Source of the DNA: Marinobacter sp. AC-23
GTDB lineage: Bacteria; Pseudomonadota; Gammaproteobacteria; Pseudomonadales; Oleiphilaceae
Length of the DNA: 64,000 nt
Assembly: GCF_001858325.1 (NCBI RefSeq)
Contig: NZ_MBPP01000001.1
Location: forward strand, 62,001-126,000
Direction: 5' to 3'
The notes beneath the pieces were generated by a model. It saw only the letters and a program-made list of their open reading frames with translations. It did not search any database and was not told where the DNA came from. Positions 13,500 to 63,785 of this stretch are shown in pieces. Position 1 is the stretch's first letter. The number at the start of each line of letters is the position of its first letter. The position numbers and the translations under genes are program-made.

Positions 13500-13565
13500 G
13501 GGTCGTTCTCCCTTTGTTCCTGATTTTGGTGCATTATCCCCGAAGTGTCCCGGAAGGCGTAACGC

Positions 13566-40927: not shown

Positions 40928-41532
40928 ATGCAAGAATTCCGTTACAACAGTGACTTAATCGGGGGATCTCTATTGGTTAGAGAGTCTCGAATAATCGCCG
41001 AATTGCTGCTTGATAACGCTAGCGAGGCTGAGTGGAAACAGGCTGTGATTTTGGATAACCGCCTGCAAAAGCGAAGCCCTGCAACCGCACTGCGCCAGGC
41101 CAGAGCATTGCGCCAGCGCTTGGAACTGTTGGATCAGCCTTTCTGGCGAGCATTGCGTGATGGCGACGACGAGCTCGCAACGCAAGTGGCATTCGTTGCC
41201 ACTCTGGAGCGCAACCTCTTGCTGGTGGAGTTTGTGGAAACCGTGGTGAGAGACGCCTTTTTGCTGCAGGCCGAATCGATAGCTCGTTATAGCTGGTTAG
41301 ATTTCCTGGAGGAACGCACCGATAGGGATTCGTCGATAACGGGCTGGGCGGAGTCTACAAAAAAGGAGATGGGGCTGGTTGTGTTCCGAAGCTGCGCGAA
41401 GTAGGTCTCGTACAGAAAGGCCGCACCCTAAAATTACAGCAGATATTGGTTAGACCAGAAGTGAACATTTTACTGCAAGCCAGCCGCCGTGACCGAATTG
41501 AAGCCTGCTTACATGTTGGAGCACGAGCATGA
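40928..41532 (+). CDS. brxA: BREX protein BrxA (frameshifted)
   Basis: First gene of the type 1 BREX operon, DUF1819 family. BrxA is a small DNA-binding protein in characterised systems. The N-terminal 154 residues (YNSDLIGGSLLVRESRIIAE, WKQAVILDNRLQKRSPATA, FLLQAESIARYSWLDFLEER) are family-like, but the frame ends at 41404. One missing A at 41389-41390 converts the tail to VVFRKLREVGLVQKGRTLKL, reaching a stop at 41530-41532. That stop overlaps the brxB start (ATGA) and restores the normal 201 residues. Either a sequencing error or a recent inactivating mutation; the first is more likely given similar breaks elsewhere. Confidence 0.88.
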
Positions 41533-42110
41533 GTCAGTCGTTACAAGACCGGCTAAACCAGATCCCAGGCAAAATTCTTTCCCAAGCGTTTCTGCAAAGC
41601 CAGGGTCTGGGCAATGAGATTGGTTTTTGGGTGTTCGACTACGCGCCCGAAGAAGAGCTGAAGGTTCGCGAATATCTAGCATTTCTAACCGGCTTTCTGT
41701 CCAAGAAACAGAGCCACCTTAAGGTGATCAGCATCAATCTTTTGGAAATGATGCGGGATTACCTAGAGGAGCGAAAATTCCTCGACAAGGCCGTGCAGAT
41801 GCAGGAAGGAAAGGGCGACCAAGCCCTGCTGAAGGCACTCGCTGGCCCCATGCACATGGACAAGTTTGCCCCTTACATGATGGAACAGACAAACGCGTCG
41901 GAACAGGACATCATTCTGATACATGGGCTAGGTTCTGTGTGGCCGGTACTTCGCGCCCACAGTCTGCTGAACAAGCTGCACGGGCTGCTAGGCCACAAAC
42001 CCGTTGTGCTGTTTTATCCGGGTGAATACGACGGCCAAAGCCTGACCCTGTTCAACCGTATACCCAGCAATAACTATTATAGGGCCTTCTCGCTAGTGCC
42101 CCACAACTGA
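41529..42110 (+). CDS. brxB: BREX protein BrxB
   Basis: DUF1788 protein of 193 residues, found in all type 1 BREX operons and of unclear biochemical role. It begins MSQSLQDRLNQIPGKILSQA and contains NEIGFWVFDYAPEEELKVRE, IILIHGLGSVWPVLRAHSLL and VVLFYPGEYDGQSLTLFNRI, the most conserved segments. The start overlaps the restored brxA stop by four bases, and brxC begins 38 bases later. Confidence 0.95.
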   Translation: MSQSLQDRLNQIPGKILSQAFLQSQGLGNEIGFWVFDYAPEEELKVREYLAFLTGFLSKKQSHLKVISINLLEMMRDYLEERKFLDKAVQMQEGKGDQALLKALAGPMHMDKFAPYMMEQTNASEQDIILIHGLGSVWPVLRAHSLLNKLHGLLGHKPVVLFYPGEYDGQSLTLFNRIPSNNYYRAFSLVPHN

Positions 42111-42148: not shown

Positions 42149-45100
42149 ATGACCATTAAAAACCTCTTCTTCAAGCCCCTGGATCGTTCAATCAACGGTG
42201 TGGTTAAAGCCGACCAGGCCGACGATGCAACCGTTTGGCAGGAGCTGGAAGAGTATGTGGTTACCAACGAGCTGGAAAAGCACTTTCGAGCCTTTTTTGA
42301 GAGCTACGGAACCAACCTGCAAGACCCCTCTATCTCCAATCGGGTTGGTATTTGGATCTCCGGCTTCTTCGGTTCGGGTAAGTCGCACTTCCTCAAAGCC
42401 CTTTCTTACTTGCTCGAAAACAAAGAGGCCTATGATGAGCAGGGCAATACCAAGCACGCGGTAGAGTTTTTCGACGAGCAAAAGCTACGCGATGCCATGA
42501 TCCGCGCCGATGTGCAGAAAGCGGCGAACACCCTAGCGGATGTCATCCTCTTTAACATCGATTCCAAGGCCAGCTCCAACGATGCCGGTAACCCGATTCT
42601 CAGTGTGTTTCTGCGGGTGTTTAACGAACACCAAGGGTTCAGTGGCGACCACCCCCATATTGCACACATGGAGCGCCACCTGGAGCAGAAGGGCGTCTAT
42701 CAGGCTTTCAAAGACGCGTTCGCAGAATCGACCAACTCCCAATGGGAAGACGAGCGGGATGGCTACCAGTTCTATCAGGACGATATCGAAGGAGCCATCG
42801 CCAAGGCGCTGAACCTCTCTGCCGACGCTGCACACAAATGGTTTGAAGAATCTGAAGAAACCTTCTCGGTCTCTGTGGAAAACTTCTGCCATTGGGTCAA
42901 AGAGTATCTGGATGCCCAAGGCCCCGAACATCGCATGGTATTCATGGTGGACGAAGTAGGGCAGTTTATTGGTTCCGACACTAAGCTCATGCTCACCCTG
43001 CAAACCATCACCGAAAACCTGGGTACCATTTGTAACGGTCGAGCCTGGATTGTTGTCACGTCGCAGGCAGACATGGAAGCTGTACTGGGTGACCTCACTT
43101 CATCCAAAGCCAACGACTTCTCCAAGATCGCCGGCCGGTTCAAAACTCGCTTGTCCCTGTCTAGCTCCAACACAGACGAAGTCATCCAGAAGCGTTTGCT
43201 GCGGAAAACTCCAGAAGCGGAAACCGAACTAAGGGCGGCCTGGGAGCAGAGCGGCGACATACTCCGCAACCAGATTACCTTTGACCGCTCCGGGCCAACA
43301 CTCAACAACTTCGATGGCCCGGAAAGCTTTGTGGCCAACTACCCATTCGCGCCATACCACTTCCAATTGGTGCAAAAGGTTTTTGAGGAAATTCGCAAAG
43401 TCGGCGCTACCGGTGCCCACCTGGCCTACGGTGAACGTTCCATGCTGGACGCCTTCCAGATGGCAGCCATGAGTGTGGCCAGTGAGCAAATCGGCGCACT
43501 GGTTCCCATGCACGCCTTTTACCGTTCCGTAGAAGGTTTTTTGGACACAGCCGTAAAGCGCACCATTGACCAGGCCAGTGAAAACCCCAGCCTGGATGCC
43601 TTCGATGTTCAAATTTTGCGTACCCTATTTATGATCCGCTACGTAGAGTTGATCAAGGGCACTTTGGACAACCTGGTAACCCTGTCTATAGCGAAAATCG
43701 ACGAAGATAAGCTTGGCCTGCGCCGACGCATCGAGGAAGCTCTGCAACGGCTTGAGAAAGAAAGCCTGATCACCCGCAATGGCGACGAGTTTGTCTTTCT
43801 TACCAACGAAGAGCGGGACATTACCCGCAAGATCAAAGCCACAGACATAGCAAGCACCGATGAAAACAAGGAACTGGCCAGCCTGATCTATAAAGACCTT
43901 CTGAAAGACAAAAACAAATACCGTTACCACGTAAACAAGACCGACTACAGCATTGGCCGTTATTTGGATGGCCACACTCTGGATGGTCGCTACGAATCGG
44001 ATTTACGAGTCGAAATCGTTTCGCCACTCGATCTGGATTACGTGCAATACAGCGAAGCGGGCTGCATCAACAAGTCCAGCGAAGGTGCCACCGGCCAGGG
44101 TGTGATCAAACTGCCCGATGACAAAGTTTTCTTTCAGGAGTTGCGTACCTGGCTCAAGACCAACAAGTTCATTCGCATGAACGACGACGGCAGCAACACT
44201 GATCTCACCCGCATTCTTGCCGACCGGGGCCGTGAAAACCAAGAGCGTCGCAAGCGCCTACGCCACACTCTGGAAGACATGCTTCTGCGCGCCGAGTGCT
44301 ATGCGTTAGGCCAGCACTTGCAGCTCTCCACCAGCAGCCTAACCGTGCGCTTCGATGAGATATGCGAGTACGTGTTAGAGAACACCTACACCAAGCTTGG
44401 CTTCCTGAAGGTACTGCAGCAAGAGCCATTGCGTGAACTGAGCGCAGTGCTTACCGTGGACGATATCGCCCAGATGGGCATGGCCCTGGATGGCGAAGAG
44501 GGCAACCCGCAGGCCGTCAGAGATGTAGAGCAATACGTTTCACTGCGCACAGGCGGTGACGACCGCTTGTTGGTGAGTGATATCATCGACCGATTCGCCG
44601 CACGCCCTTATGGCTGGCCGGATGGTGAAATACTGTTGATACTTGGCAGACTGGCTGCCTCCGGGCGCATCTCCTTCCACACGTCTGGCCCGTCTATGCC
44701 GCTGAATGAGGTATTTGATTACCTCAACAATAGCCGCAGGCGCAGAGAAATCTCGGTACAGAAGAAGCGCCAGGTAGACGATGCCATTCTTAAGCAGGCT
44801 CGTAACCTGTCCCGAGACTTGTTTAACGCTCTGGGCCCGGATACTGAAAAAGACCTGTTCGAGTTCTACCAGAGCCACTTGAACCAGTGGCTGACCAACC
44901 TGCGCAGTTATAAAAGCAAGATAGATGTGGGGCGATTCCCCGGTAAGCAAATCATCGAAGACGGCATCCTCACCTTAGAGCGCTTGCTGGTTAACCGCGA
45001 GAGCTTTGACTTTTTCAAAGTCGTTATCAACAACAAAAACGACTACCTGGATTTAGAAGAAGACTATCGCGATATTCACGAATTCTTCAGCAACCAGCTC

Positions 45101-45802
45101 CACAGCTGGCAACAACTGCAAACCGCGCTCTATCAGTTCGAGAAGAACCACCAGGCATTGAATAAAGATGAGACAGCGCACAAAGCCCTCACTGAACTGA
45201 AAAAAATCAATCAAGCCGACACGCCTTACAACCTGCTGCACAAAGTGGCAGGGCTGATAGAAACCGTAGAGGCCGTAAACACCCGAGTTGTCACAGAAAA
45301 ACGGGACCACGCGCTTGAAAGAGTAGAAGAGCGTATTCAGCAGTTACAAGCGGAAATGCTGAAAAGCGGCATTGCCAGCCCAGATCTCAGTAACCGCCTA
45401 TTACGGCCGTTGCAGCTTATAAAAGAAGATCTGGAAACCGAAACCAGCATTGCCCAAATTTTCATGCTGCAATCCCAGACCGCCCAGGAAAAACTCGAAG
45501 ACAGCCTGCTTGAACTGGAACGGGCCATGCGTGCTGAGGCTGAAAAACAAGCCAAGGCCCAAAGAGATGCTCAAGAAGATGCGGAAACTTACACTAACAA
45601 GCCCTCGCCAGACGCGCCCGCAATAACCGCACCGGTAGCCATGCCAAAACCTGTTGTGGATGTGAATGCGGCAAAGATATTCAGTAAGCTAGGCAGTGGC
45701 ATCTATTTAGAAAGCCAGAAAGACGTTGATAGCTTTATCGAAGCCCTGAAAAATGAATTGGATGCCGCTATTGCGATTGGAAAAAGGGCCCGCTTGAAGT
45801 AA
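42149..45802 (+). CDS. brxC: BREX ATPase BrxC
   Basis: Large P-loop ATPase (DUF499-like, relative of PglY/BrxC) required for BREX defence and host methylation. 1217 residues with Walker A GFFGSGKS at residues 72-79 and Walker B VFMVDEVGQF near 260-270. A long helical region and an Ala/Lys/Glu-rich coiled segment lie near 1110-1160. ATG 42149 follows AAGGATGATCCGTA. The C-terminal 60 residues are typical (SKLGSGIYLESQKDVDSFIE). It is intact despite its length. Confidence 0.95.
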   Translation: MTIKNLFFKPLDRSINGVVKADQADDATVWQELEEYVVTNELEKHFRAFFESYGTNLQDPSISNRVGIWISGFFGSGKSHFLKALSYLLENKEAYDEQGNTKHAVEFFDEQKLRDAMIRADVQKAANTLADVILFNIDSKASSNDAGNPILSVFLRVFNEHQGFSGDHPHIAHMERHLEQKGVYQAFKDAFAESTNSQWEDERDGYQFYQDDIEGAIAKALNLSADAAHKWFEESEETFSVSVENFCHWVKEYLDAQGPEHRMVFMVDEVGQFIGSDTKLMLTLQTITENLGTICNGRAWIVVTSQADMEAVLGDLTSSKANDFSKIAGRFKTRLSLSSSNTDEVIQKRLLRKTPEAETELRAAWEQSGDILRNQITFDRSGPTLNNFDGPESFVANYPFAPYHFQLVQKVFEEIRKVGATGAHLAYGERSMLDAFQMAAMSVASEQIGALVPMHAFYRSVEGFLDTAVKRTIDQASENPSLDAFDVQILRTLFMIRYVELIKGTLDNLVTLSIAKIDEDKLGLRRRIEEALQRLEKESLITRNGDEFVFLTNEERDITRKIKATDIASTDENKELASLIYKDLLKDKNKYRYHVNKTDYSIGRYLDGHTLDGRYESDLRVEIVSPLDLDYVQYSEAGCINKSSEGATGQGVIKLPDDKVFFQELRTWLKTNKFIRMNDDGSNTDLTRILADRGRENQERRKRLRHTLEDMLLRAECYALGQHLQLSTSSLTVRFDEICEYVLENTYTKLGFLKVLQQEPLRELSAVLTVDDIAQMGMALDGEEGNPQAVRDVEQYVSLRTGGDDRLLVSDIIDRFAARPYGWPDGEILLILGRLAASGRISFHTSGPSMPLNEVFDYLNNSRRRREISVQKKRQVDDAILKQARNLSRDLFNALGPDTEKDLFEFYQSHLNQWLTNLRSYKSKIDVGRFPGKQIIEDGILTLERLLVNRESFDFFKVVINNKNDYLDLEEDYRDIHEFFSNQLHSWQQLQTALYQFEKNHQALNKDETAHKALTELKKINQADTPYNLLHKVAGLIETVEAVNTRVVTEKRDHALERVEERIQQLQAEMLKSGIASPDLSNRLLRPLQLIKEDLETETSIAQIFMLQSQTAQEKLEDSLLELERAMRAEAEKQAKAQRDAQEDAETYTNKPSPDAPAITAPVAMPKPVVDVNAAKIFSKLGSGIYLESQKDVDSFIEALKNELDAAIAIGKRARLK

Positions 45803-46533: not shown

Positions 46534-47239
46534 GCATGTCTGCATTACACAAAACAATGGTAACCAAAGTGGCCGAGGCGCTGGGCCCCGAGCTGTTGAA
46601 GCAAGTCGCATTTGTGGGTGGGTGCACAACAGGGTTCTTTTTAACCGATGAGTTTGTCATTGAGCAGGTGCGCCACACAGACGATGTCGATCTTATCGTT
46701 CATGTAATAGGACATACTGGCTTTTATACTCTTCAGAAGGCCTTGCGTAAAAAAGGCTTCAAAGATGTGTCACCTGATCCCGCCGACGATGCCCTGTATG
46801 TGCAATGAAACTGGGTGACCTGCGTGTGGATTTTATGCCAGACGATGCCGCGGTATTAGGGTTTGCAAACCAGTGGTACGCCAAAGCGCTTAATACTGCG
46901 ACGCCTTTTCAACTTTCTGATGACCTCTCGATAAGATTAGTCACCCCACCGTACTTTTTGGCGACAAAGCTGGAAGCCTATAAGGGACGGGGAAGGGGAG
47001 ACGCGCTCTCCAGTCATGATATTGAAGATGTGCTTACACTAATTGATGGGCGAGAGTCCTTGATTGGGGAAGTTAGTGAAATCTCCAGTGAACTCCGGTC
47101 TTACCTTGCGGATGAGTTTGGCAAGTTACTCAACGACCAGAATTTCGAGTATGCAGTGAACAGTCAGGCAGGTGGCGACCAGGAGCGAGAGGCTATTTTG
47201 TTTGAAAGGCTGGAAAACCTAGCGCAGGTGCCAGAGTAA
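46530..47239 (+). CDS. AbiEii-like nucleotidyltransferase (frameshifted)
   Basis: A protein of the nucleotidyltransferase superfamily of AbiEii-type toxins. Motifs: VAFVGGCTTGFFL (GG motif) and RHTDDVDLIVHV (DxD metal site), then FLATKLEAYKGRGRGDALSS and HDIEDVLTLIDGR (Lys and Asp-Ile motif of the family). The first frame stops at 46808 in the middle of the fold. A missing G at 46805-46806 (TGGAAA read as TGAAA) joins ALYVQWKLGDLRVDFMPDD and gives 236 residues. As it stands the ATGA overlap looks like two genes, but the fold spans both. Its stop shares a base with the next start. Toxic activity is inferred from family. Confidence 0.82.
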
Positions 47240-47949: not shown

Positions 47950-47975
47950 TGATGGGCAGCTGCTAGATGAGTTTT

Positions 47976-48038
47976 AGTGTAGAAAAAATAGCAAATTGCG
48001 GCATTAGTGTAAAAAAAGTGAGCGCAGTGTAAAAAAAG
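47976..48038 (+). repeat. Three phased direct repeats upstream of pglX
   Basis: AGTGTAGAAAAAA at 47976-47988, AGTGTAAAAAAAG at 48006-48018 and AGTGTAAAAAAAG at 48026-48038. The starts are 30 and 20 bases apart, whole turns of the helix, so the A-tracts face the same side. The array sits in the 127-base gap between the PP2C gene and pglX, ending 38 bases before the pglX start. It may be a regulator binding array or a bent-DNA element for a promoter internal to the island. Confidence 0.75.
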
Positions 48039-48076
48039 GCCACCCAAGGTAGGCAAGAAAACATGGAGCTGTACCA

Positions 48077-50029
48077 ATGAACACCGCCAACATCAAACGC
48101 TACGCCCCAAAAGCGCGTAATGCCTTTATCGCCGCCGTTACCAAACAAGCGGCCCGTTACGGCGTAACTGCCCAAGGCATAACGCCCATCGAACAGCGGG
48201 GCGATATAGCACTGATTGGCGAGCAGGCGTTTCCCAAGTCGGCTTTTCAGCCGCGCAAAGCACTGGAGCGCCGGGTAGAGCAGCTGGGTTTTGCTCAAGC
48301 GATGGAGCAGGCCGCCTACAGTTGGTTTAACCGCCTGTGCGCCATTCGCTATATGGAAGTACACGGCTACCTGGACCATGGCCGACGGGTGTTGAGCGGT
48401 GAAAAACACGACTCTGCCGATGGCGAGGCAGGCACACCGCAAATCCTCCACGACTGCCTGGACATAGACCTGCCAGGTTTGGACAAGCAAAAAGTCACCG
48501 ACCTGAAGCTAGACGGCACCAAAGACGAAGAGCTCTACCGCGAACTCCTGCTGGCCCAGTGCCATGCACTGCATGAAGCCATGCCCTTCCTGTTTGAGGC
48601 AGTAGACGACGCCACCGAATTGCTGCTGCCCGATAACCTCACCAAAACCGACTCTCTGATCCGTGAGCTGGTCAGCGCCATCCCCGAAGAGGACTGGCAG
48701 GATGTGGAAATCATCGGCTGGCTTTACCAGTTCTACATCAGTGAGAAGAAAGACCAGGTGATCGGCAAGGTGGTCAAAAGCGAAGACATCCCCGCCGCGA
48801 CTCAACTGTTCACCCCCAACTGGATTGTTCAGTACCTGGTGCAAAACTCCGTAGGTCGCCAGTGGCTGCAAACCTATCCGGACAGCCCGCTCAGAAACCA
48901 GATGCCGTACTACATCGAACCGGGCGAACAGCCACCGGAGGTGCAGGCGCAAATGACTGAGACCATTCCCGCGAGCATTGACCCAGAAAGCATCAAAGTA
49001 CTCGACCCCGCCTGTGGCTCCGGACACATCCTCACCGAAGTCTACAAAGTGCTCAAAGCCATCTACGAAGAGCGTGGCTACCGCAGCCGGGATATTCCGC
49101 AGCTAATCCTGAAGCACAACCTGTTTGGCCTGGATATCGACGACCGGGCAGGGCAGCTAGCCGGCTTCGCCTTGATGATGCTGGCCCGAGAAGACGACCG
49201 CCGGCTGTTCAGCCGTGTGGCGGATGGCGATGTAACGCTTAACGTGCTGTCGCTGAAAGAAACTGGCCATCTCGACCTGCCACAACTTTGGCGCGATCTG
49301 AACCTGAGTGGGGATTGGCAGCAGGGAAGTTCGCAGAGTTTGTTTGAAAATGACCAAGCTGATCTGAGTGCGGCTAGTGCGGATGAACGCTATCAGTTAC
49401 TGGAGCGCACCTTAGAGCGCTTCAACGAAGCCAAAACATTTGGTTCTTTGATTGAGGTTCCGAAAGAAGAAGCTGAGCTCCTCAAAGGATTGCGAGATGA
49501 GCTGGAGCGTTTGTTACTCAATGGCGACGTTATGCAAAAGTCGGCTGCCGGAATACTGTTACCTTATGTTCGTCAGGCTTGGGTGCTGTCTCAGCGCTAC
49601 GATGCGGTGATTGCCAACCCACCGTATATGGGCAGTAAGTACCAAGCACCGGCCGTAAAAAAATACCTGAAAGAGGCCTATAAAGGTTATGAAAAGGATT
49701 TGTTTTCAGCATTCATTATCCGGAACCTGGGCTTGTCAAAAGAGGGCGCTCAGCTTGGTTTTATGACGCCTTTCGTGTGGATGTTCATCTCTAGCTATGA
49801 GCAGTTACGCAAGCACCTGATTACCGAAAAGACAATCACATCGTTGATACAGCTGGAATATTCAGGGTTCGATGGTGCGACAGTTCCCATTTGTACTTTT
49901 ACGCTGGAGAACGCTTATAACCCTCATTTCAAAGGTGGATACGTGCGGTTATCCGATTTCCGGGGTGCGGCACAACAAGGGCCGCGAGCACTGGAAATCA
50001 TTCAGGCAGCGAATGAGGTAGGCAAATGA
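48077..50029 (+). CDS. pglX: BREX methyltransferase PglX, N-terminal part
   Basis: Site-specific adenine methyltransferase that marks host DNA for BREX. This 650-residue part starts MNTANIKRYAPKARNAFIAAV and contains the SAM motif DPACGSGHILTEVYKVL (about residue 315-330) and catalytic NPPY in YDAVIANPPYMGSKYQ (about 513-517). It continues through DFRGAAQQGPRALEIIQ, which in complete PglX proteins leads directly into the target-recognition half. Here it stops at 50027-50029, overlapping the start of a 60-residue frame. It must work with the C-terminal half if PglX is active. Whether this split is real is discussed in the findings. Confidence 0.9.
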   Translation: MNTANIKRYAPKARNAFIAAVTKQAARYGVTAQGITPIEQRGDIALIGEQAFPKSAFQPRKALERRVEQLGFAQAMEQAAYSWFNRLCAIRYMEVHGYLDHGRRVLSGEKHDSADGEAGTPQILHDCLDIDLPGLDKQKVTDLKLDGTKDEELYRELLLAQCHALHEAMPFLFEAVDDATELLLPDNLTKTDSLIRELVSAIPEEDWQDVEIIGWLYQFYISEKKDQVIGKVVKSEDIPAATQLFTPNWIVQYLVQNSVGRQWLQTYPDSPLRNQMPYYIEPGEQPPEVQAQMTETIPASIDPESIKVLDPACGSGHILTEVYKVLKAIYEERGYRSRDIPQLILKHNLFGLDIDDRAGQLAGFALMMLAREDDRRLFSRVADGDVTLNVLSLKETGHLDLPQLWRDLNLSGDWQQGSSQSLFENDQADLSAASADERYQLLERTLERFNEAKTFGSLIEVPKEEAELLKGLRDELERLLLNGDVMQKSAAGILLPYVRQAWVLSQRYDAVIANPPYMGSKYQAPAVKKYLKEAYKGYEKDLFSAFIIRNLGLSKEGAQLGFMTPFVWMFISSYEQLRKHLITEKTITSLIQLEYSGFDGATVPICTFTLENAYNPHFKGGYVRLSDFRGAAQQGPRALEIIQAANEVGK

Positions 50030-50208
50030 TTATTCAAGAGCCAAGCAAGAATGTACCGATGCACAGCGGCCAAACAAATGTCCACGCCCTGAACCAACAC
50101 CAGATCAGCCACAAACTGAAAGGCAAGGCCGCCAGCCCCACATTGAACCGACTGGCAAACCACAATGTCATCGACAGCACCGCATTGCCCAGAGGAGCAG
50201 AACAATGA
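50026..50208 (+). CDS. 60-residue frame between the two pglX halves
   Basis: Starts at ATG 50026 overlapping the pglX N-part stop (ATGA) with GAGGT seven bases upstream. It ends at 50206-50208 overlapping the C-part start (ATGA). The peptide is rich in Asn, His and Gln (QTNVHALNQHQISHKLKGK). Codon use (mostly C or G in third position) looks like host genes, suggesting real coding. It has no similarity I recognise. It may be a separate small protein, an insert, or a piece of a continuous pglX if one A was lost at each junction. Confidence 0.5.
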   Translation: MIIQEPSKNVPMHSGQTNVHALNQHQISHKLKGKAASPTLNRLANHNVIDSTALPRGAEQ

Positions 50209-50219
50209 GCCAGCAAGAA
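50038..50219 (+). repeat. Imperfect direct repeats flanking the pglX insert
   Basis: GAGCCAAGCAAGAA at 50038-50051 and GAGCCAGCAAGAA at 50207-50219 differ by a single extra A. They bracket nearly all of the segment that separates the two halves of pglX. Loss of the intervening DNA by recombination before the extra A would put the pglX N-part in frame with the C-part, apart from the TGA at 50027. Confidence 0.6.
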
Positions 50220-52004
50220 ACAAAGGACATGGCGAAGCATTTTTACCGGGCCTCTGCGGCGGATTTTATGAAGATTCCGGGGAGTCCGGTGGCGTATTGG
50301 GCTTTAACTGGAGAATTAACAGCTTTTGAAAGCGGCACGCAGTTAGAAGATCTAGCTCCTACACGCAAGGGAATGGTGACCGCTCGGAATTCACTTTATG
50401 TGCGTGACTGGCATGAGGTTTCTCTTTCAAAATCAGGACTTAATTATTATTGCTCAAGGGAAAAAGCAAAAAAAAGTGGGAAAAAATGGTTTTCATACCT
50501 GAAAGGAGGTGGTTTCCGCCGTTGGTATGGTAATAAATACGATGTCATTAACTGGGAGGACGATGGGTATCTTCTTCAGACAACAAGGCATCCCTCTGAA
50601 GATAGAGTTTGGGCAACTAACTTTAATTTGGAATACATATTCCAGCCAAACATTAATTGGGGAGCTGTAACGTCCAGTCGCTTTTCAGCTCGCGCAAGCT
50701 CCGGGGGCGAGCTTTTTGATGCGGGAGGGTCTGCTTGCTTTCCAGATGATAAGGACTATTTTCTAGTTCTAGCGTTCTTAAACTCAAAGGTAACTGGGGT
50801 TCTTCTTCAAACGCTAAATCCTACTCTTAACTTTCAAGCAGGAAATATATCTAGCCTTCCATTAATTCAGTTTAAAGAAAGAGTTGAGATTGAAGAAAAT
50901 GCAAAAAAGGCTATAGAAAACGCTAAAGAAGACTGGGATTCATTTGAGACCTCATGGCATTTCACGAAAAATCCATTGCTGAGCTCCAAAGAACATAGCA
51001 AGACCATTGAGTTGAGCTACGCCGAAAGTCAGCGGAGGTGTAAATATCTTATAAATTCTCTTCATCATATCGAAGAGGTAAATGATGGGCTGTTTATAGA
51101 AGCATATAACCTTCAGGATGTAGTGAATCAAAACACTCCAATGGATGAAATAACTCTAACTTGCAACCCCCATTATCGCTATGGCGGCAAGCGCAGCGAA
51201 GAAGAGCTTGAGACCTTGCTCCGGTGTGATACTTTCAAGGAACTGGTAAGCTATGCCATCGGTTGCATGATGGGTCGCTACTCGCTGGACAAGCCAGGCC
51301 TAATCCTCGCCAGCCAAGGCGAAACACTCCAAGATTATCTAGAGCAGATTCCATCCCCAAGCTTCGCGTCAGACGAAAATGCCATTGTGCCACTCACCGA
51401 TCAGGAGTGGTTCCCCGACGATGCCACTAACCGTTTCCGTGAATTTGTCCGGGTAGTGTGGGGCGACGAACACCTACAGGAAAACCTCGATTTCGTCGCC
51501 GAAAGCCTCTGCGTGCACGCCATAAAACCCAAGCGTGGCGAGTCGGCCCTCGACACCATCCGCCGCTACTTGAGCACCCAGTTCTATAAAGACCACCTGC
51601 GCACCTACAAAAAACGCCCCATCTACTGGCTGTTCAGCTCCGGCAAACAAAAGGCTTTCGAGTGCCTGGTGTACCTGCACCGCTATAACGAGAGCACGCT
51701 TGCCCGTATGCGTACCGAATACGTCATCCCCCTCAGCGCCAAGCTCAACGCCTACGCGGAGAAGCTAGAGCAAGACAAAGACGCCAGCACCTCCACCGCA
51801 GAAACCAAGCGCCTGGAAAAAGAAGTCGCCACCCTGCACAAACAACAAATCGAACTCGCCGAATTCGACGAAAAACTCCGCCACTACGCCGATCAACGCA
51901 TCAGCCTGGATCTGGATGATGGCGTGAAGGTGAACTATGGGAAGTTTGGGGATTTGCTGGCTGAGGTTAAGGCAGTGACGGGTGAGAAGCCGGGAGGGCA
52001 GTAA
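50205..52004 (+). CDS. pglX: BREX methyltransferase PglX, C-terminal part with target-recognition domain
   Basis: 599 residues beginning MSQQETKDMAKHFYRASAAD, from ATG 50205 with a good AGAGGAG eight bases upstream. FMKIPGSPVAYWALTGELTA is the point at which PglX target recognition begins. The segment coding for residues about 65-325 is AT-rich, while the remainder (GRYSLDKPGLILASQGETL to KKRPIYWLFSSGKQKAFECL, then a charged coiled region near 520-570) is GC-richer. The last base of the stop is also the first base of the DUF262 start (TAATG). Without the N-part it has no catalytic NPPY motif. Confidence 0.9.
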   Translation: MSQQETKDMAKHFYRASAADFMKIPGSPVAYWALTGELTAFESGTQLEDLAPTRKGMVTARNSLYVRDWHEVSLSKSGLNYYCSREKAKKSGKKWFSYLKGGGFRRWYGNKYDVINWEDDGYLLQTTRHPSEDRVWATNFNLEYIFQPNINWGAVTSSRFSARASSGGELFDAGGSACFPDDKDYFLVLAFLNSKVTGVLLQTLNPTLNFQAGNISSLPLIQFKERVEIEENAKKAIENAKEDWDSFETSWHFTKNPLLSSKEHSKTIELSYAESQRRCKYLINSLHHIEEVNDGLFIEAYNLQDVVNQNTPMDEITLTCNPHYRYGGKRSEEELETLLRCDTFKELVSYAIGCMMGRYSLDKPGLILASQGETLQDYLEQIPSPSFASDENAIVPLTDQEWFPDDATNRFREFVRVVWGDEHLQENLDFVAESLCVHAIKPKRGESALDTIRRYLSTQFYKDHLRTYKKRPIYWLFSSGKQKAFECLVYLHRYNESTLARMRTEYVIPLSAKLNAYAEKLEQDKDASTSTAETKRLEKEVATLHKQQIELAEFDEKLRHYADQRISLDLDDGVKVNYGKFGDLLAEVKAVTGEKPGGQ

Positions 52005-53981
52005 TGGAGCTTCAAAGTCTTAATAATATTTTCAAAGAAAGAATTTTACGCATTCCGGATTATCAGCGGGGGTACGCTTGGACAACACATCACCTAGAAG
52101 ACTTTTGGGAGGATCTGGTGCAACTGGAGGCGGATCGTGTTCACTATACTGGCGTAATTACCTAGAGCCTGTGTCAGAGCAGATTTGGTCGAAGTGGGAA
52201 AATGATCAATGGTTAATTGAGGACTTGGCGTATAAGCTTTCTACGTGGTAGATGGCCAACAGCGGATTACGACCTCAATGATTCTAATTCAGACCATTCT
52301 CGAAACAGTGCCAGAAAGTGAGTTGCTGGCTTCGCAGTCCATCGAAAATATTCGCAAAAAGTTCATACTCTTTAAAGCTGATGATGGTATTCGTGAGAGT
52401 TACATTTTTGGATACGAAAAAGATAATCCCAGCGATGAGTTTTTGCGAACTCGTATCTTTGGTATGCATTCATCATCCAATCAGAAAATGGAGACCCTTT
52501 ACACACGAAATCTTATAGAGGCAAAAAAATTCTTCACTGAAAAACTTTCTCAGCTTCCATTGCTTGAAATTTCAACTCTTTATAAAAAGGCGACCCAGAA
52601 ATTCAAGTTCAATCTTTATGAAATAAGCGATGAGATTGATGTATTTGTTACTTTCGAAACCATGAATAATCGAGGGAAAGTACTTACTAGTCTAGAGTTG
52701 TTGAAAAACCGTTTAATTTATCTCTCTACGCTTTTTAGGAATAACACAGGCAAAGATAAGCTCAGGTCAAATATCAACGATGCTTGGAAATCCATGTATG
52801 AATATCTAGGCAAGAATCCCGAAGTGTTGCTTAGTGATAGCCTGTTCCTTCGGAATCATTGGGTGATGTACTTTAAGTACTCCAGAAAAAAAGGTGATGA
52901 CTACATAAGATTTCTTCTAGATGAGAAGTTTACCGCTCGTAACATCACAAATCCCAAGGGTGAGGAATATGAACTTAAGATCGAAGAAATATCTGATTAT
53001 GTGAAGAGCCTTCAGCAGTCTATTGTATATTGGTTCTACATGCACAACCCTTTCTATGCTCAAACAGATCAGTTGATTGACTCCCAGAAACGTTGGCTCG
53101 ACAGACTGGGGCGGCTCAGTTTTAGGTCTTTTAGGCCACTGATCCTGTCTGCATTTGTCTCGCGGCAAGATCCTCGAAAGATTTCCCAATTACTTGAACA
53201 GGCTGAAAGATATAACTTCGCCATATTCAACCTTAGTCAGCGGAGATCGAATACGGGGGATACTGAGTTCTTTGGCATGTCCCGAGAGTTATTGACAGGG
53301 CAGAAAACAATTGATGAAGTGATCGATTCTATTGAGCGCTGGGTCGACTGGTATTACGATCCGGACAAGTTTCTGAATCATATCAAAGACAAATATGAGC
53401 TAGAAAGGGATGGGTTTTATCACTGGGATGGCGTGCGCTATTTTCTGTATGAGCACGAGCAGTGGTTGAGAGAGAAAGGTAAACAGGCAACTAGCAAGCT
53501 CTCATGGGAAGCGCTAAAAACTAACAGAAGAGATCATGTGACGCTGGAGCATATTTTCCCGCAGACACCTGTCGATCCTTACTGGACGGAACGTTTTGAT
53601 CACCTTAAAAGCGAGAAGCAGCGGTATCTGACACACTCACTAGGTAACCTGTTGCCGCTTTCGCGTTCCAAGAACTCATCACTACAAAATGACAGCTTCC
53701 CCAAGAAGGTTAACAACGGCAGCGGTGTCGGTTACTACAATGGTTCGGTATCAGAAAATGAGATTGCGCAATGCGAGGAGTGGACACCGACCAAAATCTA
53801 CGAGCGTGGTTTGGATCTCCTCGCATTTATGGAGGACCGCTGGAACGTAAAGCTTGGTGATAAAGATTTTAAGAAACAACTGCTTCACGTTGTTGACATC
53901 GATCTGAACGCAGTTGAAAGCTTTCAAGAATCTGAACCTGATTCAAAACGTTTGCCTCAGTCAATTAGCAACGAGCTTTAA
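52004..53981 (+). CDS. DUF262/DUF1524 nuclease, GmrSD/BrxU-like (two frameshifts)
   Basis: Resembles the fused GmrSD type IV restriction enzymes that cut modified phage DNA. A related enzyme (BrxU) sits between pglX and pglZ in other BREX islands. ATG 52004 gives MELQSLNNIFKERILRIPDY followed by QRGYAW, the DUF262 start. VDGQQRITTSMI (nucleotide site) and the C-terminal HNH motif HVTLEHIFPQTP (DUF1524) are present. Two single-C losses, near 52161 (ACCCTAGAG read as ACCTAGAG) and near 52237 (AAGCCTTTC read as AAGCTTTC), break the N-terminal 80 residues. Restored length is about 659 residues. Codon use is AT-richer than neighbours, suggesting separate acquisition. Confidence 0.85.
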
Positions 53982-53993
53982 GGAATTTAGCCG

Positions 53994-59101: not shown

Positions 59102-61723
59102 ATGGATTCAAAACAGCTCACCCAAGGGCTTCATCAGGCTTTTTTCTCCGAAAACCACCGCCTGGTGTTCTGGTACGACCCGGAGCAAAGCTTCACCGAT
59201 GAGCTTTCACAGCTGGATTTGCCCGATGTTCAGCTACTGAATATGGCCGGTGCGTCTGCCCTGGCTGTAAAGCTGAAGCTTGAGCTGGAGGATCCAAAAG
59301 GCAAATACCTGCTGTATTTCCCGCAAGCAGAGCCTGAACCTGAGAACGACTGGCTGCTGGATATAAAGCTCTATTCCCGCAGCTTCTACGCCGATCGTAT
59401 CTCCATCATCTTCAATGAACTGGGATTGCAGCAACAAAGCTTGCGAGCGCACCTTGCCAACCGTGAGAAGTTCTTGAGCAAGGGGCGGATCGCGGCACTC
59501 AAGCGGTTTATTCAACCGGACTTCAATGAGGAAGCGCTGGATCTGGCTATGATTGCGGTGGTTGTACGTGCTGAAAGCCCGGACATCGCCAATATTCTGT
59601 TTACCTTGGGTGATGAGCTGGCAAAAGCCGGTGAGGGCTTGGAGTGTACTTCTGCATCTCTTGTCGAGTTGCAGAAGTACGGTCTTGTGCCGCCTCTGGT
59701 GAGTGCTTTGCAGGGCGAAGTGGGTTATCCCGCCTCTACGGAAGAACTTAGCGGTGCGGCTGCGTTTAATTTCGGCAACTTCCTCATTCGCTTGCTGGCT
59801 ACGGGTTACTGCGAGAGCATTTCAGATGTCCCAGGCTGGGCCAGCTCCGTTGCCATTTCTTCTGCCAATGCCAGGGCTACGTCCCGGGCCTTGTTGTCTC
59901 GCTGGCGTGATAGCTCTCGCTATTATCAGGCCTATGATGAGGTAGCTGGGTGGGTGGCTAACACCCTGAACATCAAGTCCCGCATTGCCGATCTTCCGAT
60001 TGAAACTTTGACTAATGTGGCGACCTTTCAGGAAGCAGAAACTCAAATCATCGTGGATTTGGTTAAGGCAATTCCCGATGCCCGGCCAGCGGATTTCACT
60101 GTTTTCGCTCGTGTAATTTCAGAGCGCTTAGATGGTTATTGGGCCTCTCGTCATAAAGACGACGATACCCGTCGCAAGTACCGGCTGATCTATTCCGCGC
60201 TGTCTGCTGCCATCCAGTTATTTTCTCTGCGCCAGGCGCATAGCGCTGGCTTTCATTTCGCCAGTACCGAGGCGCTTTATAAAGCCTATGAAACCGATCT
60301 ATACCAGTTTGATACCCAATACCGGCACTATTGTGCAGCCTCCCAAAAGGCCCATATCGAGCTGCTAAAACAGCTGGATGACGCGGTAGAGCAATGCTAC
60401 GCCAACTGGTATCTGGATCAGCTGGCTCGCAACTGGGGCGACTTAGTTGAGTCTGAAAATCGTCTGGAGAATTGGTTTATTTCTGGCGTGCCCAATCAAC
60501 AGAACTTTTACGAACATTGGGTGAAGGCCAAACAGGATAGCGCCCGCAGTAAACGCCAGGTGGTGATCATCAGCGATGCGTTCCGCTATGAGGCGGCGGT
60601 GGAGCTTCGGGATCGTATTAACCTGAAGCGATACAGTGAGGCCAAGTTATCCAGCCAGTTAGGCGTGGTGCCCAGTTATACCACTCTGGGCATGGCGGCT
60701 TTGCTGCCGCATCAAACGCTGGAGTACCGCGAAGGCGTGAGTGATGACGTATTTGTAGATGGAAAGTCCAGTAAAGGCAGCGCCAACCGCAGCAAGATTC
60801 TGGCGGGCTACAAGGGTATTGCCGTACAGGCAGACACCGTTAAGGCATGGAGCCGGGACGAAGGGCGGGAAGCGCTCAAGGATCAGCAGTTGGTGTATGT
60901 GTACCACAACGTGGTCGATGCTCGCGGTGATAGTGCGTCTACCGAGTCTGAGACTTTTGATGCGGTGGAATACGCGATTGAAGAGCTTACGGAACTGACG
61001 CGCAAGATTATGATGCACTTCAACACCACCACCGTGTTAATCACGGCAGACCACGGGTTCCTGTTCCAGCACAGCAAGTTGGAAGCCGCGGACAGAACCG
61101 CACTGGTCGATAAACCAGGCAATGCGCTGAAGAGCAAAAAGCGCTACGTGATTGGCCACGATCTGGCGGATGCGAAAGATGCCTGGTGCGGCTCTATCAA
61201 GCAAACGGCGGGCACAACTTCTGACACGCGATTCTGGATTCCCAAAGGCGCAAACCGTTTCCACTTTGTGGGCGGGGCGCGTTTTGTTCACGGCGGGGCC
61301 ATGCCGCAGGAGATTGTGGTGCCGGTGCTGTCCGTTAAGCAGCTTCGGGGCGAAAAGGCCGAGAGCCGTTCCAAACGCAAGGCGGAGGTGATATCGCCAA
61401 AGCCGAGCCTGAAGATGGTGAACAATATCCAACGCTTTGATCTGATGCAGACAGAGGCGGTTAGCGATCAGGTGCTACCGGTTACCATTGCGGTGGGAAT
61501 CTACGAGGGTGCCGAGCTGGTGTCCAGCGAAGAGGTAATCACCTTCGACAGTGCCTCGGAATCCATGGGCGAGCGTGTTAAGCCGGTGCGGTTGTCGCTG
61601 GCGGGAACAGACTTTGATCGTAAGCGTGATTACTTTCTTGTGCTGAAAGATAAAGACTTGAACACCGAAATTGAACGCTATCGGGTAGTGATCGATCTGG
61701 CTTTTACCGACGACTTTTTCTGA
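59102..61723 (+). CDS. pglZ: BREX phosphatase-fold protein PglZ
   Basis: Alkaline-phosphatase-superfamily protein essential for BREX; metal-dependent nuclease activity is reported for members. 873 residues. Metal-binding Asp in VVIISDAFRYEAAVELRD (about residue 482-500) and Asp-His in TTTVLITADHGFLFQHSK (about 640-655) are intact, and HNVVDARGDS lies between. ATG 59102 follows GATAAGGCGCAGTAA. The preceding 131-base gap separates it from the accessory block. Confidence 0.95.
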   Translation: MDSKQLTQGLHQAFFSENHRLVFWYDPEQSFTDELSQLDLPDVQLLNMAGASALAVKLKLELEDPKGKYLLYFPQAEPEPENDWLLDIKLYSRSFYADRISIIFNELGLQQQSLRAHLANREKFLSKGRIAALKRFIQPDFNEEALDLAMIAVVVRAESPDIANILFTLGDELAKAGEGLECTSASLVELQKYGLVPPLVSALQGEVGYPASTEELSGAAAFNFGNFLIRLLATGYCESISDVPGWASSVAISSANARATSRALLSRWRDSSRYYQAYDEVAGWVANTLNIKSRIADLPIETLTNVATFQEAETQIIVDLVKAIPDARPADFTVFARVISERLDGYWASRHKDDDTRRKYRLIYSALSAAIQLFSLRQAHSAGFHFASTEALYKAYETDLYQFDTQYRHYCAASQKAHIELLKQLDDAVEQCYANWYLDQLARNWGDLVESENRLENWFISGVPNQQNFYEHWVKAKQDSARSKRQVVIISDAFRYEAAVELRDRINLKRYSEAKLSSQLGVVPSYTTLGMAALLPHQTLEYREGVSDDVFVDGKSSKGSANRSKILAGYKGIAVQADTVKAWSRDEGREALKDQQLVYVYHNVVDARGDSASTESETFDAVEYAIEELTELTRKIMMHFNTTTVLITADHGFLFQHSKLEAADRTALVDKPGNALKSKKRYVIGHDLADAKDAWCGSIKQTAGTTSDTRFWIPKGANRFHFVGGARFVHGGAMPQEIVVPVLSVKQLRGEKAESRSKRKAEVISPKPSLKMVNNIQRFDLMQTEAVSDQVLPVTIAVGIYEGAELVSSEEVITFDSASESMGERVKPVRLSLAGTDFDRKRDYFLVLKDKDLNTEIERYRVVIDLAFTDDFF

Positions 61724-61736
61724 AGAGTATGAACGA

Positions 61737-63785
61737 ATGAATGATTTAGCCGCGCAGGCCGACAAGGATCTCGATCAGTTACTCAATGACCATTTCGCGG
61801 GCCGTGTGGTGCGCAAGGATCTGACCAAGCAGATCAAGGAAGGCGCGAATGTGCCGGTGTACGTGCTGGAATATTTGCTGGGCATGTACTGCGCCTCGGA
61901 TGACTCGGAAATCATTGAGACTGGCCTGGATAACGTCAAAAAGGTGCTGTCTGAAAACTACGTGCGCCCGGATGAAGCCGAGAAGGTGAAGTCACTGGTT
62001 CGGGAGCGGGGCAGCTACAAAGTGATCGATCGGGTTACCGTGCGCCTGAATGAGAAAAAGGATTGCTACGAGGCGGCGTTTTCCAATCTCGGTATCAAGG
62101 ATGCGGAGATTGGTGCCGGTATTGTTAAGGAAAATGAGAAGCTGCTTGTTGGCGGTATCTGGGTAATCGCCACGCTTAGCTATTATTACGAAGAAGGACA
62201 AAAGGGCTCGCCGTTCGGTGTGAGCACCCTAAAGCCAATTCAAATGCCCAATATGAACATGGCTGAGTTGTTTGCGGGTCGTGCTGCCTTAACCGTAGAC
62301 CAGTGGCGAGAAACCTTGATTCGTTCTATTGGTATGGAACCGGCGTCGTTGGATGAAACCGTGCAGTGGCACCTGCTGGCGCGGATGATTCCGTTTGTTG
62401 AGAACAACTATAACGTGTGTGAGTTAGGGCCAAGGGGCACGGGTAAGAGCCATATCTACAAGGAGTGCTCGCCCAATAGTATTCTTGTTTCGGGCGGCCA
62501 GACCACGGTTGCCAATCTGTTCTACAACATGAGCACCCGAAAAATGGGGCTGGTGGGGCTTTGGGATCTGGTCGCTTTTGATGAGGTTGCAGGTATTAAC
62601 TTCGGCGACAAAGACGGCATCCAGATAATGAAGGATTACATGGCCTCGGGATCGTTTGCCCGTGGTCGAGAGCAGATGGAGGCGAATGCTTCCATGGTGT
62701 TTATTGGCAACATCAACCAGTCCGTTGAGTCGCTGGTGAAAACCAGCCATCTTCTGGCGCCGTTCCCTGCTGCGATGGTTGATTCTGCCTTCTTTGATCG
62801 TTTTCACGCCTATATCCCTGGTTGGGAAATTCCCAAAATGCGGCCGGAGTTCTTCACCAACCGCTATGGCTTGATCGTGGATTACCTGGCCGAGTTCTAT
62901 CGGGAGATGCGCAAGCGCAGCTTTGCGGATGCGATAGACAAACATTTCAAGCTTGGCAGTGATCTGAACCAGCGTGATGTGATTGCGGTACGCAAAACGG
63001 TTTCCGGCCTGCTGAAGCTGCTGTACCCACACGGCGAGCTTGATAAAGAGGCCGTACGCCAGTGTTTGGAATATGCCTTGGAAGTTCGTCGCCGCGTTAA
63101 AGAGCAGCTCAAAAAAATTGGCGGCATGGAGTTCTATGATGTGCATTTTAGCTACATAGACAATGAAAGCCTGGAAGAGCATTTCGTGACGGTGAAAGAG
63201 CAGGGCGGTGGCAAGCTGATTCCTGAGGGGCCAAGCAAGCCGGGTGTGGTGCACTTGGTTGGTGTTAGCGCCAAAGGTGTGCCGAGCCTCTACCGCATCG
63301 AGCTGCAGGTAACCAAAGGCACTGGCAAACTTGCCACTTCAGGCTTATGGAGCATGCCTCCCCTGCGAGAACAGGTAAAAATGGCGTTTGATTATTTCAA
63401 AGCCAACATAACCCGGATCTCAGGTGCTTCCCGTGTGTTGGAGCACGACTTTCACCTTCACCTTGTGGATCTGCAAAACGGTGGCCCCATCCAATCACTG
63501 GCGCTACCCAGCATGGTCGCCTTTGCCTCTGGCATCATGTCGCGGCCAACACAGGCACAATCTGTGGTGCTTGGTGATATGAGTCTAGGCGGCAGCGTAA
63601 ACCCTGTTCAAAGCCTTGCTGAGTGTCTGCAGGTGACTTTTGATGCAGGTGGCAAACGTGTGGCACTGCCTATTACTAGCGCCGCTGATATTCCTACTGT
63701 GCCAGGGGAGCTGTTTACTAAGTTTCAGACGAGTTTTTATGCCGACCCTGTGGATGCGGTGTTTAAGGCGTTGGGAGTTGATTGA
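61737..63785 (+). CDS. brxL: BREX protein BrxL, Lon-like ATPase
   Basis: AAA+ protein with a C-terminal Lon-like domain that closes the type 1 BREX operon. 682 residues starting MNDLAAQADKDLDQLLNDHF; Walker A GPRGTGKSHIYKE at about 231-243, Walker B LVAFDEVAGINFGDKDG at about 278-294. In the Lon-like region (about 570-680) the stretch GGSVNPVQSLAECLQVTFDA has Ala-Glu-Cys where Lon proteases carry the catalytic Lys (LKEK). The Ser-containing PSAG motif is also not evident, so proteolysis is unlikely. It starts 13 bases after pglZ. Confidence 0.95.
   Translation: MNDLAAQADKDLDQLLNDHFAGRVVRKDLTKQIKEGANVPVYVLEYLLGMYCASDDSEIIETGLDNVKKVLSENYVRPDEAEKVKSLVRERGSYKVIDRVTVRLNEKKDCYEAAFSNLGIKDAEIGAGIVKENEKLLVGGIWVIATLSYYYEEGQKGSPFGVSTLKPIQMPNMNMAELFAGRAALTVDQWRETLIRSIGMEPASLDETVQWHLLARMIPFVENNYNVCELGPRGTGKSHIYKECSPNSILVSGGQTTVANLFYNMSTRKMGLVGLWDLVAFDEVAGINFGDKDGIQIMKDYMASGSFARGREQMEANASMVFIGNINQSVESLVKTSHLLAPFPAAMVDSAFFDRFHAYIPGWEIPKMRPEFFTNRYGLIVDYLAEFYREMRKRSFADAIDKHFKLGSDLNQRDVIAVRKTVSGLLKLLYPHGELDKEAVRQCLEYALEVRRRVKEQLKKIGGMEFYDVHFSYIDNESLEEHFVTVKEQGGGKLIPEGPSKPGVVHLVGVSAKGVPSLYRIELQVTKGTGKLATSGLWSMPPLREQVKMAFDYFKANITRISGASRVLEHDFHLHLVDLQNGGPIQSLALPSMVAFASGIMSRPTQAQSVVLGDMSLGGSVNPVQSLAECLQVTFDAGGKRVALPITSAADIPTVPGELFTKFQTSFYADPVDAVFKALGVD

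What the first reader, a model, noticed from the sequence alone, without database searches (positions are those of the whole stretch)
48077..52004. pglX in three pieces joined by two ATGA overlaps
The methyltransferase half (to 50029), a 60-residue frame (50026-50208) and the target-recognition half (from 50205) lie in three successive frames. Each junction is an ATGA with a Shine-Dalgarno-like sequence upstream (GAGGT and AGAGGAG), which would allow coupled translation of a split PglX. BREX pglX is known for frequent disruption and phase variation. The alternative is loss of one A at each junction, which would make one protein of about 1309 residues with an insert of unusual Asn/His/Gln-rich sequence. 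Either way the insert is not part of the usual PglX.
Basis: partly seen in the sequence, partly recalled or inferred. Interest (0 to 1): 0.75.

Follow-up and report, generated by a model that had tools for sequence, protein, structure and literature searches.

The report
Split BREX methyltransferase gene with reverse-transcriptase remnant
A bacterial anti-phage gene that is normally one piece is here cut in two at a hinge between its chemistry half and its DNA-recognition half; relatives carry whole extra defence genes, such as a reverse transcriptase, in that gap, and this genome appears to keep only a short remnant of one.

Summary
Confirmed. pglX of a type 1 BREX locus is encoded as a 650-aa methyltransferase half, a 60-codon ORF and a 599-aa recognition half, joined by two ATGA overlaps with strong Shine-Dalgarno sequences. 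It is not a sequencing error: two genomes of the genus, two of the order, two enterobacteria and one E. coli chromosome are split at the same point, the hinge between methyltransferase and target-recognition domains. In six of these seven a complete ~1000-aa UG5 reverse-transcriptase/nitrilase (DRT) gene lies between the halves; in E. coli ET896 only its decayed 3' end remains. The 60 codons here align, in register with the stop, to the last residues of those reverse transcriptases, so they are most likely a remnant too. Elsewhere the cargo is a Schlafen-like gene, once followed by a PARIS-like pair. In three genome samples 7 of 26 pglX N-half hits (window included) end at this hinge; in one the contig ends before any C half. 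Both halves show purifying selection. Best reading: the hinge is a recurrent slot for guard or backup defence genes, and PglX works as two co-translated proteins, like HsdM and HsdS. Ten paper searches showed no report of it. Function is inferred, not shown.

The parts
40928..41404 (+). brxA (158 aa; covers positions 11-165 of a 209-position profile, so short at the end)
   Evidence: PADLOC BrxA E 1.5e-61
41529..42110 (+). brxB
   Evidence: PADLOC BrxB E 1.8e-69
42149..45802 (+). brxC
   Evidence: PADLOC BrxC E 0
48077..50029 (+). pglX N half: N-terminal and methyltransferase domains, DPACGSGH and NPPYMG motifs present, 650 aa
50015..50019 (+). Shine-Dalgarno-like GAGGT before the 60-codon ORF
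   Evidence: duplex energy -8.5
50026..50029 (+). ATGA overlap: stop of the N half and start of the 60-codon ORF; cargo genes start on the same kind of overlap (ATGA or GTGA) in G119, G063, G155, G143 and G1052
50026..50208 (+). 60-codon ORF; residues 14-57 align without gaps to the C-terminal end of UG5 RT-nitrilase proteins: probable relic of an embedded reverse-transcriptase gene
50184..50300 (+). 117 bases 92% identical in DNA to G119 (21 bases before the C half and its start); no synonymous difference in the first 32 codons: probable recent recombination with a reverse-transcriptase-bearing allele
50191..50197 (+). Shine-Dalgarno sequence AGAGGAG of the C half
   Evidence: duplex energy -8.3
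50205..50208 (+). ATGA overlap: stop of the 60-codon ORF and start of the C half; the complete RT gene of G143 ends on the same overlap
50205..52004 (+). pglX C half: target-recognition and C-terminal domains (HsdS-like), 599 aa, with the leader MSQQETKDMAKHFYRAS typical of the reverse-transcriptase-split alleles
59102..61723 (+). pglZ
   Evidence: PADLOC PglZ E 4.5e-304
61737..63785 (+). brxL
   Evidence: PADLOC BrxL E 0

Best explanation
The window holds a type 1 BREX locus whose pglX gene was cut, at the hinge between the methyltransferase and target-recognition domains, by an embedded defence gene. Relatives still carry that gene whole (UG5 reverse transcriptase fused to a nitrilase domain); here it has been deleted down to about 44 C-terminal codons in a 60-codon ORF. 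The halves stay separate genes. Ribosomes ending the N half would re-initiate on the ATGA, read the remnant, and re-initiate on the second ATGA to make the C half, so the two polypeptides are made together and join into a working PglX, much as HsdM and HsdS do. Shown by sequence: the split, its position, its recurrence with reverse transcriptase, Schlafen-like and Schlafen-plus-PARIS-like cargo, purifying selection on both halves, strong ribosome-binding sites in the window. Well supported: the remnant's origin. Inferred: coupled translation, assembly, BREX activity, and that the cargo acts as guard or back-up to the methyltransferase.
For: In G143 the RT ends on the same ATGA overlap as the 60-codon ORF. 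E. coli ET896 keeps both halves and a decayed RT 3' end. Other cargo: Schlafen AlbA_2 + AriA/AriB in G1052; Schlafen in G1088 (contig ends inside it); a Schlafen-type relic in G253. The split falls between residues 630 and 642 of solved PglX 8c45, at the hinge described in PMC11341690 and PMC11842806 (passages). Remnant: Smith-Waterman against whole RTs, shuffles reaching the score 0 of 5000 for G063, L028, L045, 5 for G119, 1 each for G143 and G155; in G143 the alignment ends three residues before the stop, as in the window. dN/dS 0.11 (N half, window/G119), 0.049 (last 200 codons of the C half), 0.13 (N halves L028/L029). Enteric split alleles form one clade (0.998, 1.0), so their divergence is probably post-split.
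Against: A profile HMM of 18 RTs gives the 60 residues only 2.9 bits, and 4 of 2000 shuffles do better; three of the 18 RTs (L036, L040, L041) give no significant pairwise score. Identity is only 12-14 of 44. Codon-position matches are 23/23/21 for G119 but 22/24/19 for L028 and 23/20/15 for L030, so neutral decay is a soft inference; the ORF has no demonstrable protein function and may be open by luck. Shine-Dalgarno pairing is weak at several junctions of relatives (cargo starts: G063 -4.2, G155 -5.1, G143 -4.1, G1088 -1.7; C halves: G1052 -4.0, ET896, G253 and G143 -5.6). In ET896 the relic is not open and the overlap is lost, so coupling is not essential there. dS between window and G119 is above 1.3, near saturation. 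PMC11341690 reports that the isolated C-terminal domain of Salmonella PglX could not be expressed, and that the embedded Salmonella PARIS did not respond to Ocr (passages), which weakens the guard idea. Neighbouring accessory genes of the window are broken and brxA is short, so a locus decaying as a whole is not excluded.
Confidence: 0.78

Rival explanations
1. Dead locus: pglX was inactivated by the insertion and deletion; the halves are translated incidentally and BREX no longer methylates or defends.
For: GmrSD (52004-53981) lies in three frames and PDC-M21B in two; brxA is short; G253's split pglX carries further frameshifts; NCBI calls the ET896 N half a frameshifted pseudogene.
Against: Both halves of the window are full length without stops and keep the MTase motifs; dN/dS of window against G119 or G063 is 0.05-0.22, and up to 0.26 among all split pairs with finite dS. 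The same split persists with unbroken halves in G119, G063, G155, G143, G1052 and the enteric MAG. brxB, brxC, pglZ and brxL of the window cover their profiles almost end to end.
Confidence: 0.18
2. Sequencing or assembly errors: one intact ~1309-residue PglX.
For: Draft genome of 105 contigs; two other genes nearby look frameshifted.
Against: The same split with a 3-kb gene in the gap in independent genomes; the profile has no room for the insert; the C half has its own SD-ATG and the leader shared by RT-split alleles.
Confidence: 0.02
3. The 60-codon ORF makes a functional small protein, for example a bridge between the halves or an inhibitor.
For: It is open, starts and stops exactly on the neighbouring genes, and has a strong SD.
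Against: No homologue in plasmids, viral contigs or family libraries; low identity to any RT tail; the counterpart in ET896 is not open.
Confidence: 0.06
4. Programmed frameshifting at the two ATGA sites joins the three frames into one long PglX.
For: Short A runs at the junctions.
Against: No slippery heptamer seen by eye (no search run); strong SD plus ATG at each junction; relatives have a complete separate gene in the gap.
Confidence: 0.02

Closest known systems
Type 1 BREX, single-chain PglX (BrxX), e.g. E. coli HS, Salmonella D23580
   Same: Gene set and order brxA-B-C-pglX-pglZ-brxL; both halves cover the PglX model end to end
   Different: PglX is encoded as two proteins; [quoted passage not shown]
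Type I R-M: HsdM and HsdS as separate subunits, with embedded prrC
   Same: MTase and specificity parts on separate, neighbouring genes, and a defence gene embedded in the locus (PrrC passage in PMC12707154)
   Different: No hsdR among the neighbouring genes scanned; the halves are PglX, not HsdM/HsdS, by sequence
UG5-nitrilase RT (DRT group; relative of DRT1)
   Same: The embedded genes of G119, G063, G155, G143, L028 and L029 match PADLOC RT_UG5-nitrilase at E 1e-303 or better; YVDD and nitrilase-like motifs kept in the five looked at (all but G143; motif roles recalled)
   Different: Sits inside pglX; in the window only a short relic remains
Backup effectors in BREX loci: PARIS, Schlafen, GmrSD (PMC12839542, passages)
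   Same: Same classes of cargo, in the same operons; PARIS is also embedded in the Salmonella BREX locus (PMC11341690, passages)
   Different: [quoted passage not shown] 'reverse transcriptase', 'nitrilase', 'split', 'interrupt', 'frameshift' and 'disrupt' have 0 occurrences in the main text; figures and supplements not seen

Membership tests
Type 1 BREX | brxA, brxB, brxC, pglX, pglZ, brxL present in order | tested here: met
   PADLOC hits for all six; brxA short (158 aa)
Type 1 BREX | PglX above the NCBIfam BREX_1_MTaseX cut-off, full profile covered | tested here: met
   Both halves above 500 bits, positions 1-648 and 649-1210
Type 1 BREX | PglX as one polypeptide | tested here: not met
   Two genes plus a 60-codon ORF. 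I file it as a variant of BREX-1, not as a standard member
Type 1 BREX | Host N6-adenine methylation and phage exclusion | not testable with these tools
   No methylome or phage data
UG5-nitrilase RT (as origin of the 60-codon ORF) | RT and nitrilase domains with catalytic motifs | tested here: not met
   The window has only ~44 C-terminal codons. No match to P0004 at E<=10 in the own genome (without a positive control in that call) and one RVT_1 hit below the cut-off. Filed as a relic, not as a DRT
UG5-nitrilase RT (as origin of the 60-codon ORF) | Sequence homology of the remaining part | tested here: met
   Shuffles reaching the score: 0, 0, 0, 5, 1, 1 of 5000 for six RTs; HMM test weak, rank 5 of 2001
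Type I R-M (HsdM/HsdS) | HsdM and HsdS families plus HsdR | tested here: not met
   The halves hit PglX models; the N half hits NCBIfam hsdM only at 14.8 bits against a cut-off of 242.75; no hsdR among the neighbours scanned. Works like, not a member
PARIS (cargo of G1052) | AriA ATPase followed by AriB | tested here: met
   PADLOC AriAB 5e-26, AriA 2.9e-20, AriB 1.1e-18; DUF4435 below the Pfam cut-off

The most novel reading that the evidence does not exclude
The PglX hinge is a dedicated docking slot. Guard modules (UG5 reverse transcriptase, Schlafen, PARIS) are inserted so that methyltransferase half, guard and recognition half are translated as one chain of coupled genes; the guard is made in step with, and watches over, the MTase-specificity complex, and the split lets the TRD gene with its leader move between alleles as a unit. 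UG5 reverse transcriptases would be general guards of modification complexes, since they also sit near hsdS in many type I R-M operons.
Probability: 0.4. Interest if true: 0.87.

Novelty: new variant of a known kind. Interest (0 to 1): 0.74.

Why it matters
It would show that the single-chain BREX methyltransferase can work as separate methyltransferase and specificity proteins, linking BREX to type I systems, and that defence genes can be stored inside a core defence gene rather than beside it. Split pglX genes can be annotated as pseudogenes (as in E. coli ET896), so the arrangement may have been overlooked. It gives a concrete hypothesis for UG5 reverse transcriptases: that they guard or back up DNA-modification complexes. 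It can be tested with published BREX plasmids by cutting pglX at the hinge.

Tried and rejected
Searches for the 60-aa protein in plasmids, viral contigs and the own genome (one second hit at E 0.19, taken as chance) found no relative. DNA of the insert in 195 related genomes: 182 have a match at E<=1; apart from the own genome the listed matches span at most about 61 query bases (the list is cut). Viral-contig scans with the RT and the C half found nothing; with the N half two pglX loci (L072 intact, L073 fragmentary). E. coli near search with the L028 junction: none. Plasmid tblastn with both halves: 266 and 264 records; 60 rows of each were listed, the halves abut in the records that I compared across the two lists, and about 200 records per search were not seen. 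Two plasmid loci suspected of a split (L047, L048) proved intact. Schlafen of G1052 in plasmids: 2 records, the better one just upstream of an intact pglX in Azotobacter. Rfam finds no RNA family at the gathering score in L023, L024, L028, L084 or window 46000-54000, which, with the overlaps, speaks against a group II intron. Intein: rejected because the gap holds genes with their own starts and stops. Inversion or phase variation: no support, not tested further. No structure prediction was run: homology to solved PglX was already clear.
Full report
The observation. The outer frames are the two parts of one BREX-1 PglX: the NCBIfam model is covered at 1-648 by the first and 649-1210 by the second, with no room for the 60 residues. 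PADLOC finds brxC, pglZ and brxL and brxA and brxB around them, so this is a type 1 BREX locus. Pairing with the 16S tail is strong at both inner starts (-8.5 and -8.3 kcal/mol; 2.0% and 2.25% of 2000 random 20-mers of the window are as strong) and stronger than at the N half, brxB, brxC, pglZ and brxL.

Not an error. In the genus, 12 of 124 genomes have an N-half match at E<=1e-50. PADLOC names it RT_UG5-nitrilase, E 1e-303 and 0; Pfam RVT_1 is above the cut-off for G063 and just below it for G119. A scan of genome contigs with this protein gave 18 loci; three hold it between pglX halves: D2M19, an Enterobacteriaceae MAG (L028) and Buttiauxella izardii (L029, whose C half is frameshifted). 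In L028 and L029 an additional small gene precedes the RT (no Pfam match for that of L028). G143, of the same order, is a further complete case: N half 652 aa, UG5 RT 1017 aa, C half 599 aa, joined by two ATGA overlaps as in the window.

More split genes and other cargo. A class sample (5 of 369 genomes matched at E<=1e-60) and a phylum sample (11 of 398 at E<=1e-40), each including the window's own genome, add 4 and 10 genomes to the 12 of the genus (E<=1e-50): 26 with an N-half match. Seven have a short N frame: window, G119, G063, G253, G155, G1052, G1088; I read all seven and none of the other 19 beyond the open-frame length given by the search, except G053 and G093. In six both halves are seen, parted at the hinge; G1088 shows the N half ending at the hinge and a Schlafen gene that runs off the contig, so its C half is not seen. 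G155 has UG5 RT. G1052 has a Schlafen AlbA_2/HATPase/Fic-like_C gene, then AriA- and AriB-like genes. G253 has a decayed Schlafen-type relic (an AlbA-like start judged by eye; Fic-like_C E 2.5e-6; the two other fragments gave no Pfam match) and frameshifts in both halves; its short frame comes from the first of these, and the stop and new start at the hinge are separate. The query is a split allele and 12 of the 26 hits are from the window's genus, so 7 of 26 is not an unbiased frequency. In E. coli 407 of 5426 genomes match the ET896 pglX region by distant blastn; only ET896 itself covers 80% (30 of 410 records listed).

A second RT-deleted allele. E. coli ET896 has N half 12020-13996, a decayed RT 3' end (75% DNA identity with L028 over 363 bases that include the start of the C half), and C half 14267-16042 in L053. 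Its annotation calls the first part frameshifted. Here the relic is not open.

What the 60 codons are. Residues 14-57 align without gaps with the end of UG5 RTs; in G143 the alignment stops three residues before the stop codon, as in the window, and the stop lies in the same ATGA. Against whole RTs, shuffles reach the score in 0, 0, 0 and 5 of 5000 trials (G063, L028, L045, G119) and in 1 and 1 of 5000 (G143, G155). Without the last 13 residues it is 46, 11, 1 and 0 of 2000 for G119, G063, L028 and L045. Of 18 RTs tested with 300 shuffles each, three (L036, L040, L041) show nothing. A profile HMM is weak: 2.9 bits, four of 2000 shuffles better. Identity is 12-14 of 44, whereas intact RT tails share 22-38 of 44 with each other. 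Codon-position matches are 23/23/21 for G119, 23/24/19 for G063, 22/24/19 for L028, 23/20/15 for L030, 18/20/18 for L045. I read this as a decaying relic, kept open by chance or by the need to relay ribosomes. No RT like it is found elsewhere in the genome.

Where the cut lies. P0001 aligns to residues 1-630 and P0003 to 642-1222 of Salmonella PglX 8c45; for E. coli BrxX 9ewz the gap is 625-644. Papers place the flexible hinge at 654-659 (PMC11341690, passage) and hinge loops at 638-675 (PMC11842806, passage); the latter authors cut their model at 660/661 into two rigid halves for fitting (passage). PMC11341690 also notes that structure searches with the C-terminal domain return type I specificity subunits, and that the C-terminal domain alone could not be expressed; coupled synthesis with the N half might solve that, which is my inference.

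Selection and history. dN/dS (NG86) is 0.11 for the N halves of window and G119, 0.22 for the C halves with the variable TRD, 0.049 for their last 200 codons, 0.088 for the RTs of G119 and G063, and 0.13 for N halves of L028 and L029; dS is above 1 in the Marinobacter pairs over whole halves, so these are rough. The three enteric split alleles form one clade in both trees, while intact G053 is the sister of split G119 in the N-half tree (0.993). The six embedded RTs and one free RT (L030, sister of G143's with 0.949) form a clade with support 1.0; G155's RT groups with the enteric RTs (0.942, 0.956) although its N half is 75% identical to the window's. The first 32 codons of the window's C half show no synonymous difference from G119. 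Among the 11 intact and 5 split proteins of that alignment the leader beginning MSQ is found only in the split ones; G1052 and G253 have other leaders. This points to one origin of the RT-split cassette and spread by recombination between pglX backbones, with L030 as an exception to explain.

A wider association of UG5 RT. Of the 18 loci, three are inside pglX, one directly follows an intact pglX (Parahaliea, L041), six follow hsdS directly or after one gene (L031, L034, L035, L037, L038, L039; hsdS by Pfam PF01420), and eight are elsewhere, broken or partial (L030, L032, L033, L036, L040, L042, L043, L044). In the order of G448 (unnamed; chosen because its LptG is nearest to E. coli's in the class sample) 3 of 394 genomes have a UG5 RT (PADLOC), all in type I operons, overlapping hsdS or one or two genes after it. 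Two E. coli chromosomes carry the same type I locus with a UG5 RT one gene after the specificity subunit. Of 11 plasmid records with a hit I read two, neither in an R-M locus.

Mechanism. Most likely the two halves are separate subunits made by coupled re-initiation, and the cargo genes are guards or back-up effectors of the methyltransferase. PARIS responds to Ocr, the PglX inhibitor (PMC12839542, passage), and PrrC is embedded in a type I locus and answers its inhibition (PMC12707154, passage); against this, the PARIS embedded in the Salmonella BREX locus did not respond to Ocr in the authors' tests (PMC11341690, passages). DRT1, which shares the end of the nitrilase part with the UG5 RT (phmmer E 5.8e-10 over residues 864-969), makes template-free protein-primed DNA that controls a nitrilase effector (PMC13275509, abstract and passages); whether UG5 works alike is unknown. 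None of the functional steps was tested.

What is in print. None of the titles and abstract starts listed (lists capped) concerned pglX or brxX split by another gene. Of six papers I saw passages: PMC8934634, PMC11341690, PMC11842806, PMC12839542, PMC12707154, PMC13275509. The January 2026 BREX survey PMC12839542 describes backup effectors within BREX loci but its main text has no 'reverse transcriptase', 'nitrilase', 'split', 'interrupt', 'frameshift' or 'disrupt'. 'Split' in PMC11341690, PMC11842806 and PMC12707154 is used for other things. The library is open-access only; a UG/Abi RT paper that I recalled was not held, and supplements and figures were not seen.

Noticed in passing
window 52004-53981: The GmrSD-type gene after pglX is broken: it matches the intact G093 gene in three frames (residues 1-53, 54-78, 74-640).
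   Followed up: partly
window 46530-47239: A PDC-M21B gene is in two pieces with another ATGA-size overlap (46805-46808), covering profile positions 6-84 and 90-230; in G155 (L084 12456-13163) it is one 235-aa gene.
   Followed up: partly
L031, L034, L035, L037, L038, L039, L054, L068, L069, L070: UG5-nitrilase reverse transcriptases sit directly or one to two genes after hsdS.
   Followed up: partly
L085 10289-12180: A PARIS-like AriA/AriB pair lies, after a Schlafen gene, inside pglX of G1052.
   Followed up: partly
L024 11655-11830, L053 13800-13996, L084 9776-9960, L087 10426-10610: The last ~60 residues of the N half come in at least three unrelated-looking forms; G063, G155, G143 and ET896 share one (PPLNERNL), suggesting that exchange includes the end of the methyltransferase domain.
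   Followed up: no
L029 10991-12743: The C half of the Buttiauxella split pglX is frameshifted early (129-aa frame, then a new frame from 11460); error or switch not tested.
   Followed up: no
L041 853-4356: In Parahaliea the brxC-pglX gap holds a PsyrT/DpdF-like helicase and a DprA-family gene, another accessory slot of the same operon.
   Followed up: no
L056 3041-4504: In Azotobacter a 64% identical relative of the G1052 Schlafen gene lies just upstream of an intact pglX with a 4-nt overlap.
   Followed up: no
window 55360-58970: Between pglX and pglZ lie an AAA/PDC-M25A gene, PDC-M25B and a PD-Lambda-1-like gene.
   Followed up: no
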